DNA of 13,659 bases from Gammaproteobacteria bacterium UBA5338 (GTDB lineage: Bacteria; Pseudomonadota; Gammaproteobacteria; Pseudomonadales; UBA5862). Below the pieces are notes generated by a model. It had not been told where the DNA came from, made no database searches, and saw only the letters and a program-made list of their open reading frames with translations. Both the position numbers and the translations under genes were made by a program. The stretch spans positions 12,370 to 26,028 of the forward strand of contig DHQM01000144.1 of NCBI GenBank assembly GCA_002408105.1, written 5' to 3'. Below, piece after piece: positions 1,495 through 12,274 of this stretch. Position 1 is the first letter of the stretch; each line of letters starts with the position of its first letter.

Positions 1495-5583
<4,089 letters not shown>

Positions 5584-8490: not shown

Positions 8491-9108
8491 ATGCGCGCCC
8501 CACTTACCATCGACCTCGATTCGGTCAAAGGCTTCCTCGACCCTCGGGAAGGCGATGCCCTGTATCAACTGGCACGCGAACACTCGACACGGGGTCCATG
8601 TCTGGAAATTGGCAGCTACTGCGGTAAGTCAACGCTGTACCTGGCCACCGCCTGCAAAGAAACCGGTGCATTGTTGTATGCGATCGATCACCACCGTGGA
8701 TCCGAGGAACACCAGGTCGGTGAGGCGTACCACGACCCGGACCTGTACGACACTGGGGCAAAAGCGATGGACAGCTTTCGAGAATTTCGCTGGAATCTGC
8801 GCCGGGCAGCGCTCGAGGAGTACGTGGTCCCGATTGTCGCTCAATCCGAAGCTGCGGCTCGACATTGGTGCACCGGGTTGTCACTGGTGTTCATTGACGG
8901 GGGGCACAGTGAAGCGGCGGCGCTGGCAGACTACCGGGCCTGGGCACCCCGGGTGATGCCCGGCGGTATCCTCGCCATCCACGACATTTTCTTTGACCCG
9001 GAAGAAGGGGGCCAAGCCCCCCGCATGGTGTACGACCTGGCAATTGCCTCCGGCCTATTCGAGCCGCTCCCGATGGTGCACACCTTGGGCATCCTCAGGC
9101 GCATCTAA
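8491..9108 (+). CDS. Class I SAM-dependent methyltransferase (Methyltransf_24 / TylF-like)
   Basis: The 205-residue soluble protein has a Rossmann methyltransferase fold: motif I LEIGSYCGKST (about residues 33-43), the acidic strand-2 end in YAIDHHRGSEEH, the strand-4 VFIDGGHSEAAALADYRAW segment, and LAIHDIFFDP. The IDGGH and HD residues are the metal- and substrate-binding type seen in TylF/Methyltransf_24 O-methyltransferases, which often modify sugars. The substrate is unknown. The start is the ATG at 8491, because AGGAGA (8479-8484) lies 6 bases upstream. An ATG at 8473 lies before that site and is rejected. The gene is divergent from hldE. It converges with the helical-barrel gene, overlapping it by 54 bases at the 3' end. 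Its likely partners are the three minus-strand genes that follow. Confidence 0.85.
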   Translation: MRAPLTIDLDSVKGFLDPREGDALYQLAREHSTRGPCLEIGSYCGKSTLYLATACKETGALLYAIDHHRGSEEHQVGEAYHDPDLYDTGAKAMDSFREFRWNLRRAALEEYVVPIVAQSEAAARHWCTGLSLVFIDGGHSEAAALADYRAWAPRVMPGGILAIHDIFFDPEEGGQAPRMVYDLAIASGLFEPLPMVHTLGILRRI

Positions 9109-10134
9109 CAGCTGCACTTCCGTGAACAGTCGGCTTGCAGGCGTCGCCTGCGCCAGGGCGTCGGCCGCCAGCAAAACCGCGCCGGCCGTCCAGGTCGGCT
9201 GCTCCTCCGGCCAAAGCAGGTCCAGATCGAACTGGTACCCCGTCCAATAGACACCACTGTCGCAGCGAAACTCGTGAAGCCAACTGAACAGCTCGCTGGC
9301 TCGATGGCGGTCGCCTGCCGCCAACAGCGCCATGGTCAACTCGCAAGACTCAGCAACTGTCACCCAGGGCTCATCCGCGACGCAACGGCACCCAAGGTCC
9401 GCTTCGATGAATTCTTGCCATCGACCACGCAGGCGCGTGCGTGCCCCGTCGCCCTGAACCACCCCGGTTAAAATCGGGTAAAACCAATCCATTGAGTACC
9501 GAGATTTGCTCTGATCAAAGCGATCCGGTCGCGTGCGCAAGGCCTGACCCAACCGCTCTCTCGCCTGCTTCCACGCTGTTTGTGGTCGGGACAATGCCAC
9601 TGAAATGTTGTATCCGCACTCCAAGCTCTTGTAGATCGAACTGCAACCCGTGACCAACGCCCGGGGCAAGGGCTGGCCCTCAACGTTGCGGGCCCAATAG
9701 ACCTCGCCAGTGGTCGCCTGCAGCTCCAGTACATGCCCGATGGCGGAATTCACTGCGGGCCACATGCGCTGCAAGAATTCGAGGTCGCCGGTGATCAAAT
9801 AATGGTGCCACACCCCGGTCGCAATGTAGGCGACGAAATTGGACTCCTTGCGGCTCTCTGCATCGATGACGGCCTCTCCGGCCTCGTAGCGTGCCCACCA
9901 GCTGCCATCGTCCAACTGGTTTGCCGCGAGCCATTCGTATGCCGCCACCGCCTCAGCGTAGCGGCCGGCGATGCTCAACCCCATTGCTGCCTCAACATGG
10001 TCCCAGGGATCCAGGTGCCCGCCAATGAACCATGGAATGGAGCCGTCCGACTGCTGCACACCCAGCAAATAGTCAACCGAGGGTGCGAAATAGTCGATCG
10101 GCAGTGCGCCACGAGTTAAATACAGCTTGGTCAC
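9055..10134 (-). CDS. Alpha/alpha-barrel protein of the 'prenyltransferase-like' type, function unknown
   Basis: This 359-residue protein has repeated helix-hairpin units with QxxDGSW-like turns: QQSDGSIPWF (27-36), NQLDDGSWW (72-80) and a degenerate TTGEVYWARN (141-150). Such repeats form alpha/alpha barrels, as in terpene cyclases, prenyltransferase beta subunits and some glycoside hydrolases. Automatic annotation of such proteins often says prenyltransferase. I see no DxDD cyclase motif or prenyl-binding signature. Conserved-looking acidic and aromatic patches are HLDPWDHVE (40-48), KESNFVAYIATGVWHH (96-111), SMDWFYP (214-220), and FDLDLLWPEEQPTWTAG (302-318). With no signal peptide or membrane span it should be cytoplasmic. 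A carbohydrate-active role is my inference from the neighbouring glycosyltransferase. The GTG start at 10134 has AAAGGA 7 bases upstream, inside the end of the preceding methyltransferase gene. It is the last gene of the operon. Confidence 0.8.
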   Translation of the reverse strand: MTKLYLTRGALPIDYFAPSVDYLLGVQQSDGSIPWFIGGHLDPWDHVEAAMGLSIAGRYAEAVAAYEWLAANQLDDGSWWARYEAGEAVIDAESRKESNFVAYIATGVWHHYLITGDLEFLQRMWPAVNSAIGHVLELQATTGEVYWARNVEGQPLPRALVTGCSSIYKSLECGYNISVALSRPQTAWKQARERLGQALRTRPDRFDQSKSRYSMDWFYPILTGVVQGDGARTRLRGRWQEFIEADLGCRCVADEPWVTVAESCELTMALLAAGDRHRASELFSWLHEFRCDSGVYWTGYQFDLDLLWPEEQPTWTAGAVLLAADALAQATPASRLFTEVQLLDAPEDAQGVHHRERLE

Positions 10135-10138
10135 ACCA

Positions 10139-10843
10139 TTATCCTTTGGTGAAATACATCACAGTGCTTTTTCCGATAAGTGGATTCAAGACCTGTTCCA
10201 ACTTTCGCGTCAAAGCCGGGGCTTTCATCATGTCCCACACCAGCAAACGGTGGTAAGCCTTGACGAGTCGAGAGCACTCCCGACGCCTCCAGAGGGCACA
10301 TTGCAACCACCAATACGGGCTGTGCAGGGCGTGAGCGCGGTGGCGCGCGGACACCTCGAATCCGTGGTCCTCAATCTCGCGCTGCAGGGCCTTGCCGCAA
10401 AAAATGCGCACATGGCCGCCGGGCACCTCGTGGTACGCGTCGCTGAGCGCCCAGCAGAGCCACTCCGGGCCGTAGCTTGGAACACTGACGGCCAGCTTGC
10501 CACCGGGGCGCAAAACCCGGTTGAGCTCCGACAGAGCTGCCGCATAATCGGGAATGTGCTCCAGCACTTCGGAACAGACCACCACATCGAAGCAGGCATC
10601 GGGGAACGGCAACGACAAGCCGTCTGCCTGCAGCACGGCGGGATATCCAGACCCAGCGTGGGGGGGCGCCGCCTGCATGGCATCTCGAGCGGCGAGCAAG
10701 TCCTCAAAACCGAGGTCAACCCCCACAGACACCACTTCTGCATGGGCTGCCGCACCCAGGGTGTGTCGACCCTGTCCGCAGCCGAGGTCCAGCACCCGCT
10801 GGCCTGGCATCAGCTGCAGCCTGTCGAACTCAATGGTCTGCAT
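10139..10843 (-). CDS. Class I SAM-dependent methyltransferase (Methyltransf_11 / UbiE-like)
   Basis: The 234-residue protein shows a textbook methyltransferase core: motif I VLDLGCGQGRHTLG (17-30), acidic strand-2 end VGVDLG near 43, ADGLSLPFPDACFDVVVCSEVLEHI across 74-97 (motifs II-III), and LRPGGKLAVSVPSYGPEW near 111-128. The C-terminal part (SPYWWLQC, VWDMMKAPALTRKLEQVLNP) is extra and probably sets substrate choice. The substrate is not known; a sugar or glycolipid is inferred from context. The start at 10843 begins MQTIEFDRLQ and lies within the last 14 bases of the glycosyltransferase gene, so the two are likely translationally coupled. An upstream start at 10948 would add 35 residues read from inside the glycosyltransferase gene and without fold similarity. 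The following gene starts 5 bases beyond this stop. Confidence 0.9.
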   Translation of the reverse strand: MQTIEFDRLQLMPGQRVLDLGCGQGRHTLGAAAHAEVVSVGVDLGFEDLLAARDAMQAAPPHAGSGYPAVLQADGLSLPFPDACFDVVVCSEVLEHIPDYAAALSELNRVLRPGGKLAVSVPSYGPEWLCWALSDAYHEVPGGHVRIFCGKALQREIEDHGFEVSARHRAHALHSPYWWLQCALWRRRECSRLVKAYHRLLVWDMMKAPALTRKLEQVLNPLIGKSTVMYFTKG

Positions 10844-12119
10844 GGGACGACAGCAACCGGTCGTAGTGCGCAGACATCTGCTCGGCGCAAACCTGCCAGC
10901 AGAACAGTTCCTCAATGCGCTGCCGACCGCGGCGACCAAGCTCCTCACGAGTCGCGGGATCGGTCAGCAGGCCGGCAATGGCGCCCTGCAAGGCACCGCT
11001 GTCCGCGGGTGGCACCAAGACCCCAGCGTCCCCCACCACCTCGGGCAGGGCGCCGCCCGTGGTTGCCACAACAGGCGTGGCGCAGGCCATGGCCTCTCCA
11101 GCAGGCAACCCGAAGCCCTCATACAAGGACGGGACCACCGCCACTGTGGCCTGGGCGTACAGCTCGGCCACCGCTTCTGTCGAAAGGCCACTCAGAAACT
11201 GGATGCGGTCCTCGATGCCAAGGCGCCGGATCAACCGTTCGGTGTGCCCGCCCACCTTGGGTTTGCCCAGCACCACCAACTCGGTCTGCGGGTGCGCTGC
11301 AACCAATCCTGGGATCGCCTGCAACAGGTAGTCCAACCCCTTCAGTGGCGCATCCGCACTCGCGGTTGCCATGATTCGGTATGGAACCCGCTTGACCTCT
11401 GGCCGGGGGCGGAACTGGAGGGTATCAATGCCGTTATAGACCAGCCCGATGCGGTCACTCGGGATGGCGAAATCCGCGGCGATGTCACGCCGGGAACACT
11501 CGGAAACCGTCACCAGGTGGTCCAGCTTTCGGATCACCGCCTGCTGCATGTCCAAGAATGAATGCCAACGCCGAATCAATGCCCGGTGCCACCAGTGCCG
11601 GGCACTGTCGAGCTCGAGCTGGAGGTCGCGGGAAATCGGGTGATGGACCGTAGAAACCACCGGAATGCCCAGCTCCTGCAGCGCCAACACCCCCCAGGAC
11701 AGGCTCTGGTTGTCGTGCACCAGGTCGTAGTCCCCTCGGCGCTGCTCAAAGTAGCGCACCACCCGCCGGCCGAAGGTTTCCGGTTCGGGAAAGCCGCCCA
11801 GCAACTTGTCGATGTATTCTGCCCGATTGATTGGATCACGCAGCGCCGCGAAAGAGGCGCGGGGGAACAAGGTGGTCTGTGAGAAGAGGTCCAGGCTCGG
11901 CATCTTGATCAACCTCACCCGGGGATCCAGTTGCGGATAAGGCGGGCCAGAAAGCACATCCACCCGATGACCGGCATCGGTCAGCGCCTTGCTCAAAAAC
12001 CGGATATAGACGCCCTGGCCACCACAGTAGGGATGACTGCGGTAGCCCAATAAACATATGCGCAGTGGCTTGCGCAGGGATAGGCCAGGTTCCTCAACGA
12101 GGGCCGGAACACCTGTCAT
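10830..12119 (-). CDS. Glycosyltransferase family 4 protein
   Basis: The 429-residue protein is a GT-B fold retaining glycosyltransferase of the GT4 group. The N-terminal acceptor domain opens with ICLLGYRSHPYCGGQGVYIR, including the glycine-rich GGQGVY loop (33-38). The C-terminal donor domain has YNGID near 229, ASADAPLKGLDYLL near 254, and the EX7E motif in YEGFGLPAGEAMACATPVVA (E324 and E332), which contacts the nucleotide sugar. There is no signal peptide, so it should act at the cytosolic side of the membrane. Donor and acceptor cannot be read from sequence. The ATG at 12119 precedes the conserved region by about 20 residues and has only a weak GGA upstream. The longer frame to 12242 is rejected because it runs through the leader hairpins. 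It is the first gene of the operon. Confidence 0.92.
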   Translation of the reverse strand: MTGVPALVEEPGLSLRKPLRICLLGYRSHPYCGGQGVYIRFLSKALTDAGHRVDVLSGPPYPQLDPRVRLIKMPSLDLFSQTTLFPRASFAALRDPINRAEYIDKLLGGFPEPETFGRRVVRYFEQRRGDYDLVHDNQSLSWGVLALQELGIPVVSTVHHPISRDLQLELDSARHWWHRALIRRWHSFLDMQQAVIRKLDHLVTVSECSRRDIAADFAIPSDRIGLVYNGIDTLQFRPRPEVKRVPYRIMATASADAPLKGLDYLLQAIPGLVAAHPQTELVVLGKPKVGGHTERLIRRLGIEDRIQFLSGLSTEAVAELYAQATVAVVPSLYEGFGLPAGEAMACATPVVATTGGALPEVVGDAGVLVPPADSGALQGAIAGLLTDPATREELGRRGRQRIEELFCWQVCAEQMSAHYDRLLSSHADH

Positions 12120-12187
12120 TCGTTGTCCGCCAGTGTGTTTATCCTTCGGTCTTCTCAGCGGACCCGCACCAGCCATCCGCGCGGTGT

Positions 12188-12208
12188 GCAAGGAAGTCTG
12201 GTCCTTGC
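12188..12208 (-). promoter_or_regulatory. Leader hairpin 2 of the glycosyltransferase operon
   Basis: A perfect 7-bp inverted repeat, GCAAGGA (12188-12194) and TCCTTGC (12202-12208), has a 7-base loop. It lies in the untranslated leader between the predicted promoter and the glycosyltransferase ATG. No T tract follows, so it does not look like a terminator. Confidence 0.35.
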
Positions 12209-12216
12209 CACCGTGG

Positions 12217-12236
12217 GGCTGCTGCGCAAAGCAGCC
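12217..12236 (-). promoter_or_regulatory. Leader hairpin 1 at the 5' end of the glycosyltransferase transcript
   Basis: A perfect 7-bp inverted repeat, GGCTGCT (12217-12223) and AGCAGCC (12230-12236), has a 6-base loop. From the predicted start site near 12239 it would form at the very 5' end of the mRNA. Such stems can stabilise transcripts or act as regulatory folds. No T tract follows. Confidence 0.4.
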
Positions 12237-12245
12237 GTGCACACT

Positions 12246-12274
12246 ATTCTATGACGCGATTATTTCGCAGACAA
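12246..12274 (-). promoter_or_regulatory. Sigma70-like promoter of the glycosyltransferase operon
   Basis: On the minus strand, -35 TTGTCT (12269-12274, 4 of 6 consensus) is separated by exactly 17 bases from -10 TAGAAT (12246-12251, 5 of 6). The start would be near 12239, giving a leader of about 120 bases before the glycosyltransferase ATG. It lies just downstream of the HDOD gene stop, so the operon has its own promoter. No terminator is seen after the HDOD gene, and read-through is possible. Confidence 0.6.

What the first reader, a model, noticed from the sequence alone, without database searches (positions are those of the whole stretch)
8491..12274. Candidate undescribed four-gene glycan pathway: GT4, two methyltransferases and a helical-barrel protein
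A GT4 glycosyltransferase, a Methyltransf_11-type enzyme and an alpha/alpha-barrel protein form one overlapping minus-strand operon with its own promoter. A Methyltransf_24-type enzyme converges on it. All lack signal peptides, so they may act together in the cytosol on one substrate. From memory, unverified, very similar sets (GT4 opening GYR-x-GGQGVY, methyltransferase, 'prenyltransferase', and a methyltransferase with an HHRGSEE segment) occur in Actinobacteria. If so, this is a conserved module moving between phyla, making a methylated sugar, glycolipid or similar product. Its position beside hldE-waaA hints at the cell surface, but that is inference.
Basis: partly seen in the sequence, partly recalled or inferred. 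Interest (0 to 1): 0.7.

Follow-up and report, generated by a model that had tools for sequence, protein, structure and literature searches.

The report
Methylmannose polysaccharide genes in marine bacteria
The four genes match the known mycobacterial kit for making and recycling a methylated mannose chain, here complete in a gammaproteobacterium and many relatives that lack the fatty-acid enzyme which the chain was thought to serve.

Summary
The four genes exist as described and belong together, but the pathway is not undescribed. They are manT, pmeT3, mmpH and meT1, the methylmannose polysaccharide (MMP) cluster characterised in nontuberculous mycobacteria (PMC9883506). Three proteins have mycobacterial MMP enzymes as best PDB matches: MmpH 7qsj (E 2.4e-96), ManT 7qsg (8e-114), MeT1 6g7d (9.6e-50). 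MmpH keeps all 11 compared active-site residues; ManT keeps the three residues mutated in that paper. Gene order equals that implied by M. hassiacum locus tags. What looks new is the distribution. In 145 genomes of the window's order, mmpH occurs in 50, pmeT3 in the same 50, meT1 in 49 of them, manT in 47. Distant Pseudomonadota, including 0.9-1.3 Mb genomes, and Nonomuraea carry it too. A FAS-I profile was found in 0 of 35 cluster-bearing genomes searched and not in the window's own. The MmpH tree separates sampled Actinomycetota from Pseudomonadota, so recent transfer is not supported. Likely product: cytosolic alpha-1,4-linked 3-O-methylmannan, renewed by cutting old chains into primers. 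No product was measured; ManT Asp293 is not conserved. I found no report of the cluster outside Actinobacteria in the open-access library searched.

The parts
10830..12119 (-). manT: GT4 glycosyltransferase, ortholog of the MMP alpha-(1->4)-mannosyltransferase (429 aa)
   Evidence: Best PDB match 7qsg, E 8e-114, 384 bits against 114 for the next; 7QSG is ManT by PMC9883506; K240, E313, E321, H142 and G15 (M. hassiacum numbering) conserved, D293 is Thr
10139..10843 (-). pmeT3: class I SAM methyltransferase, likely ortholog of the putative 3-O-methyltransferase of the MMP cluster (234 aa)
   Evidence: Methyltransf_11; in the same 50 of 145 genomes as mmpH; 47% identical to the protein between manT and mmpH in Nonomuraea
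9055..10134 (-). mmpH: (alpha/alpha)-barrel MMP endo-alpha-(1->4)-mannosidase (359 aa, GTG start)
   Evidence: Best PDB match 7qsj MmpH, E 2.4e-96; 47% identity to the M. hassiacum stretch; 11 of 11 compared residues identical
8491..9108 (+). meT1: ortholog of the MMP 1-O-methyltransferase that caps the reducing end (205 aa); tail-to-tail overlap of 54 nt with mmpH
   Evidence: Methyltransf_24; only PDB match at E <= 0.001 is 6g7d, E 9.6e-50 (that 6g7d is MeT1 is recalled); D66 H67 H68 G70 S71 E73, F134 I135 D136 G137 H139, H164 D165 invariant in 65 of 65 rows
12246..12274 (-). possible sigma-70-type promoter of the manT-pmeT3-mmpH operon
   Evidence: 9 of 12 consensus positions; 2 sites in the region against 0.9 expected; weak

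Best explanation
The locus is a complete methylmannose polysaccharide (MMP) cluster. ManT adds alpha-(1->4)-linked mannose from GDP-mannose to oligomannoside primers. pMeT3 methylates the new residues at O-3. MeT1 blocks free reducing ends at O-1. MmpH cuts finished chains in the cytosol into short pieces that ManT extends and MeT1 caps, so new chains start from old ones (the partially conservative mechanism proposed for mycobacteria from enzyme and mutant work). In this bacterium the polymer would be free in the cytosol and would bind acyl chains or help growth in the cold without FAS-I. Shown here: gene identity, order, co-occurrence, conserved catalytic residues, a GDP-mannose enzyme in the genome, no match to the FAS-I profile. 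Inferred from mycobacterial biochemistry: the reactions and the product. Inference only: the physiological role.
For: PDB matches to MMP enzymes. MmpH 11 of 11 residues; ManT K240, E313, E321, H142 and G15 in 73 of 73 order loci. Gene order as MHAS_04402-04405 and MAV_2755-2758 and as Nonomuraea. Near-identical genome lists in 145 genomes: mmpH 50, pmeT3 50, meT1 49, manT 47. meT1 elsewhere in the genome in 13 of the 13 genomes searched out of 15 loci without it nearby. Four genes in 8 of 9 more distant Pseudomonadota loci fetched with flanks. GMP_PMI over cut-off in the window's genome, 715 bits. Enzymology: PMC9883506.
Against: No product has been measured in a gammaproteobacterium here. ManT Asp293, proposed to contact guanine, is Thr in the window and Asp in 0 of 73 order loci (48 T, 10 H, 7 N, 8 others), so the donor could differ. 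pMeT3 activity is only putative even in mycobacteria (PMC9883506). FAS-I was not found, so the role proposed through FAS-I cannot apply. The M. smegmatis tags printed in the paper (mmpH 6481, meT1 6482, pmeT3 6483, manT 6484) imply a different order there.
Confidence: 0.86

Rival explanations
1. A sister pathway: the same enzyme set builds a related but different cytosolic methylated polysaccharide (another donor sugar, another methyl pattern, or an acylated form).
For: ManT Asp293 is replaced in 73 of 73 order loci; Streptomyces griseus makes an acetylated MMP (figure legend in PMC9883506); most Streptosporangiales-type MmpH differ at D50, F102 and W315, so the family's pocket can vary.
Against: The window's MmpH matches mycobacterial MmpH, not the Streptosporangiales type, at those positions, and so do nearly all order loci (D50 in 78 of 79, W315 in 79 of 79, F102 in 68 of 79 with Tyr in 11). 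MeT1, which in mycobacteria blocks the 1-OH of a dimethyl-mannobiose and of MmpH products (PMC9883506), co-occurs. GDP-mannose synthesis is present.
Confidence: 0.11
2. A cell-surface module: the proteins make a methylated sugar for LPS or another envelope glycan, as the hldE-waaA neighbourhood suggests.
For: tolC, waaA and hldE lie near the cluster in 33, 22 and 10 of 80 related loci; dTDP-rhamnose-type genes lie on the other side in about 20-24 (named by eye from sequence).
Against: No export or ligase gene belongs to the four-gene set; the cluster stands without these neighbours in the held flanks of the Microbulbifer, Cellvibrio and Endozoicomonas loci; mycobacterial orthologs act on an intracellular polymer (PMC9883506, PMC2674218); an endohydrolase that recycles the product fits poorly with an exported glycan (inference).
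Confidence: 0.03

Closest known systems
MMP cluster of nontuberculous mycobacteria (manT, pmeT3, mmpH, meT1; M. hassiacum MHAS_04402-04405)
   Same: Same gene set, same order by locus tag, conserved catalytic residues, no apparent export signals
   Different: Gammaproteobacterial host without a FAS-I match; ManT Asp293 replaced; neighbours hldE-waaA-tolC; gene orientation in M. hassiacum not checked
MmpH of M. hassiacum (PDB 7qsj)
   Same: All 11 compared active-site and subsite residues; 47% identity over the aligned stretch
   Different: About half of the residues; the two lie on opposite sides of a well-supported branch
6-O-methylglucose lipopolysaccharide (MGLP) pathway of mycobacteria
   Same: Also a cytosolic polymethylated polysaccharide that binds acyl-CoA in vitro (PMC2674218)
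   Different: Glucose-based, other genes; not looked for in this genome

Membership tests
MMP biosynthetic cluster | ManT ortholog with the mutagenised residues K240, E313, E321 | tested here: met
   Conserved in the window and 73 of 73 order loci
MMP biosynthetic cluster | ManT guanine-contact residue Asp293 (a supporting feature, proposed in the paper by analogy with PimA; it is not among the three ManT variants reported there) | tested here: not met
   Thr in the window; 0 of 73 order loci have Asp
MMP biosynthetic cluster | MmpH with Asp47, Asp50, Glu262, Glu265 and the glycerol-binding subsite | tested here: met
   11 of 11 residues identical in the window
MMP biosynthetic cluster | MeT1 1-O-methyltransferase ortholog | tested here: met
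   Only PDB match is 6g7d, E 9.6e-50 (its identity as MeT1 is recalled, the 2019 paper is not held); activity not tested
MMP biosynthetic cluster | pMeT3 between manT and mmpH | tested here: met
   coordinates; 47% identical to the Nonomuraea protein at the same place; no direct comparison with a mycobacterial pMeT3 was made
MMP biosynthetic cluster | Gene order manT-pmeT3-mmpH-meT1 | tested here: met
   Equals MHAS_04402-04405 and MAV_2755-2758 by tag number; the MSMEG tags as printed differ; equals Nonomuraea
MMP biosynthetic cluster | GDP-mannose supply | tested here: met
   TIGR01479 over cut-off in G000
MMP biosynthetic cluster | Cell contains alpha-(1->4)-3-O-methylmannan | not testable with these tools
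   Needs chemistry on cells
FAS-I regulation by MMP (proposed role) | FAS-I present in the same cell | tested here: not met
   PF08354 in 0 of 1 own genome, a draft 89% complete, and 0 of 35 cluster-bearing genomes; control: 1 of 14 well-known genomes rings, Corynebacterium glutamicum

The most novel reading that the evidence does not exclude
MMP is not an actinobacterial speciality tied to FAS-I but an old, widely spread bacterial polymer, kept in about a third of the species sampled in one gammaproteobacterial order and even in genomes near 1 Mb, where it serves a FAS-I-independent function such as acyl-chain buffering or cold growth.
Probability: 0.6. Interest if true: 0.7.

Novelty: new member of a known kind. 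Interest (0 to 1): 0.55.

Why it matters
MMP has been studied as a mycobacterial and Streptomyces polymer (PMC9883506) and linked to FAS-I through in vitro work whose in vivo meaning is doubted (passages of PMC2674218). A complete cluster in many Gram-negative species without a FAS-I match separates polymer from enzyme and offers environmental organisms in which the disputed function can be tested. It also corrects a name: many of the barrel proteins that carry a name are called 'prenyltransferase'. The residue survey favours Asp47 over Asp50 as the catalytic acid of MmpH, a point the paper left open.

Tried and rejected
Undescribed pathway: rejected after the PDB sequence search. Prenyltransferase or squalene-oxidase repeat: a database label; the best solved relative is a glycoside hydrolase. 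Oligosaccharide amylase (TIGR01577): 38 bits against a cut-off of 820.7, a distant relative at most. Recent transfer from Actinobacteria: not seen in the tree, with the caveat that the named actinobacterial rows are Mycobacteriaceae and Streptosporangiales or near kin, that it is a quick tree, and that several distant proteobacterial rows have very long branches. Carriage by viruses: 16 pattern matches in viral contigs, none a relative. Plasmids: one match, Nonomuraea gerenzanensis, in an 11.85 Mb record filed as a plasmid. RNA elements: none in the window at gathering score. A manT query was out of frame; its manT numbers are discarded and one search replaces them. In one search one of 8 distant MmpH rows aligned Glu at position 47; the larger alignment gives Asp in all 449 rows. 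One search counted 30 of 72 tail-to-tail overlaps of mmpH and meT1, some of them too long because the script had run past the gene's own stop; one search recounts 28 of 72. Whether the window's own family shares the cluster could not be asked: the family held has only this genome. The 2019 paper on MeT1 is not held, so MeT1 active-site residues were not compared with it. No structure prediction was run, since three of the four proteins have solved relatives.

Full report
What is there. The window holds manT (10830-12119, minus), pmeT3 (10139-10843, minus), mmpH (9055-10134, minus) and meT1 (8491-9108, plus). The three minus-strand genes are tightly packed; mmpH and meT1 overlap by 54 nt at their 3' ends. 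On one side lies an HDOD gene; on the other lie hldE, waaA, tolC, thiC, a NUDIX-like protein, a DUF1249 protein and a metallophosphatase (thiC and NUDIX are my reading of the sequence, the others rest on Pfam). The genome is a 2.66 Mb draft of 248 contigs, 89% complete.

What the proteins are. Sequence search of the PDB gives MmpH of M. hassiacum (7qsj, E 2.4e-96) for the barrel protein, 7qsg for the GT4 (E 8e-114; 384 bits against 114 for the next chain) and 6g7d for the Methyltransf_24 protein (E 9.6e-50, the only match). The paper names 7QSJ as MmpH and 7QSG as ManT; the PDB listing itself calls 7qsg a D-inositol 3-phosphate glycosyltransferase and 6g7d a methyltransferase domain protein. 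That 6g7d is MeT1 is recalled. The fourth protein has only general methyltransferase matches (best 6uv6, D-glucose O-methyltransferase, E 1e-15).

The known system. I read the abstract and sections 4, 6, 11, 14, 16 and 18 of PMC9883506 and passages found by term. MMP is a linear chain of 11-14 alpha-(1->4)-linked 3-O-methylmannoses. ManT elongates, MeT1 caps the reducing end, pMeT3 is the putative 3-O-methyltransferase, and MmpH cuts MMP into primers for new chains. The MMP-negative mmpH mutant of M. smegmatis grew more slowly at 15 C. The tags MHAS_04402 manT, 04403 pmeT3, 04404 mmpH, 04405 meT1 give the window's order, as do the MAV tags; the MSMEG tags as printed (6484 manT, 6483 pmeT3, 6481 mmpH, 6482 meT1) do not. 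Orientation could not be read, since figures are not held.

Active sites. MmpH residues D47, W49, D50, N101, F102, T163, M215, Y219, E262, E265 and W315 are all identical in the window. In an alignment of 449 sequences (79 order loci, 9 distant Pseudomonadota, Nonomuraea and 3 x 120 database hits; some hits may duplicate loci) D47, W49, M215, Y219, E262 and E265 never vary, whereas D50 is Asn in 125, of which 119 are Streptosporangiales-type rows; these mostly also change F102 and W315. The paper found strong loss of activity for both D47A and D50A and could not decide firmly which is the acid; this pattern favours D47, its own first choice. In ManT, G15, H142, K240, E313, G314, F315 and E321 are kept in 73 of 73 order loci, L317 in 69; D293, proposed to touch guanine, is Asp in none. 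This is the main point against a simple reading of the donor.

Distribution. Of these 80 loci, 60 hold matches to all four genes (58 as manT, pmeT3, mmpH with meT1 opposed, 2 with meT1 upstream; some cut by contig ends, 55 with four complete frames), 15 lack meT1 in the held DNA, and 5 lack manT (2 of them also pmeT3), where mmpH lies within about 2 kb of a contig end. For 13 of the 15 loci without meT1 nearby the whole genomes were searched, with one control: 14 of 14 have a strong meT1 (best E 2.4e-74 or lower). In an even draw of 145 genomes of the order, own genome included, mmpH is in 50 (E <= 1e-3), pmeT3 in the same 50 (E <= 1e-55), meT1 in 49 of these (E <= 1e-40) and manT in 47 of these (E <= 1e-90); lists compared. 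The exceptions are G479 (meT1) and G379, G471, G496 (manT), drafts of 230-510 contigs; in the three manT cases the position or truncation of pmeT3 suggests a contig end. Relatedness makes these genomes non-independent; the 50 fall in 30 of 91 genera. Further out, 10 of 369 genomes of the class matched, own included and one of them only weakly, and 5 of 398 of the phylum at E <= 1e-20, own included. I fetched flanks for nine of these distant loci (7 of the 8 strong class hits other than the own genome; G038 was left out; and the 2 outside the class): eight hold four genes and one (L128) lacks meT1 in 7.7 kb. Three of the eight come from genomes of 0.9, 1.2 and 1.3 Mb that are 96-97% complete.

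Other phylum and history. Nonomuraea carries the same four genes in the same order with meT1 opposed, 1.1 kb away. In a quick tree of 62 MmpH rows (28 order rows and 25 actinobacterial rows chosen by me from many) the 25 actinobacterial rows lie on one side of a branch with SH-aLRT 100; the proteobacterial rows do not nest among them, but the other two groups are not single clades, the place of L126-L129 is unsure because of long branches, and no bootstrap was run. Pairwise distances of the four proteins over 64 loci plus the window correlate at 0.60-0.83, as expected for co-inheritance, though shared species history alone gives part of this.

Function. PMC2674218 (passages) states that both polymethylated polysaccharides bind acyl-CoA and regulate FAS-I in vitro, and that the in vivo role is doubtful. 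The FAS-I family PF08354 gave no match in the window's genome nor in 35 cluster-bearing genomes, chosen from the 80 loci, while the control found it in C. glutamicum. From general knowledge Streptomyces, a maker of acetylated MMP, also lacks FAS-I, so the separation of MMP from FAS-I is not wholly new.

Literature. Searches for MMP with Gammaproteobacteria (no paper), with proteobacteria (two papers seen in the listing only, on other subjects by title), with marine (three papers, listing only) and general MMP, ManT and MeT1 terms listed no paper whose title or abstract concerns this cluster outside Actinobacteria. The library is open-access only. One of the 120 listed gammaproteobacteria-like hits (P0101) is already labelled 'MMP endo-(1,4)-3-O-methyl-alpha-D-mannosidase' by its source, so automated annotation has reached the idea.

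Verdict. A known four-gene system, complete, in a phylum for which I found no published account of it. Gene assignment is firm; the product is a strong inference; the physiological role is open.

Noticed in passing
window 2135-4204 (-), upstream region 3700-4700: thiC-like gene without a TPP riboswitch in front: no Rfam hit in the window at gathering score and no TPP hit at E <= 1 in the 1 kb searched.
   Followed up: partly
window 9055-9108: mmpH and meT1 overlap by 54 nt tail to tail; among 72 loci where they face each other, 28 overlap and 30 are within 50 nt, so the convergent arrangement may be a regulatory trait.
   Followed up: partly
L126, L127, L129: Divergent four-gene MMP clusters (pieces 30-52% identical to the window's proteins) in gammaproteobacterial genomes of 0.9-1.3 Mb; identity of the organisms not told.
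   Followed up: partly
P0241-P0360 (database hits): Streptosporangiales-type MmpH mostly carry D50N (119 of 120), F102H (116) and W315Y (114), which may mark a different polymer such as an acetylated or otherwise altered MMP.
   Followed up: no
NZ_LT559118.1 (L118): An 11.85 Mb Nonomuraea gerenzanensis record, chromosome-sized, is filed as a plasmid.
   Followed up: no
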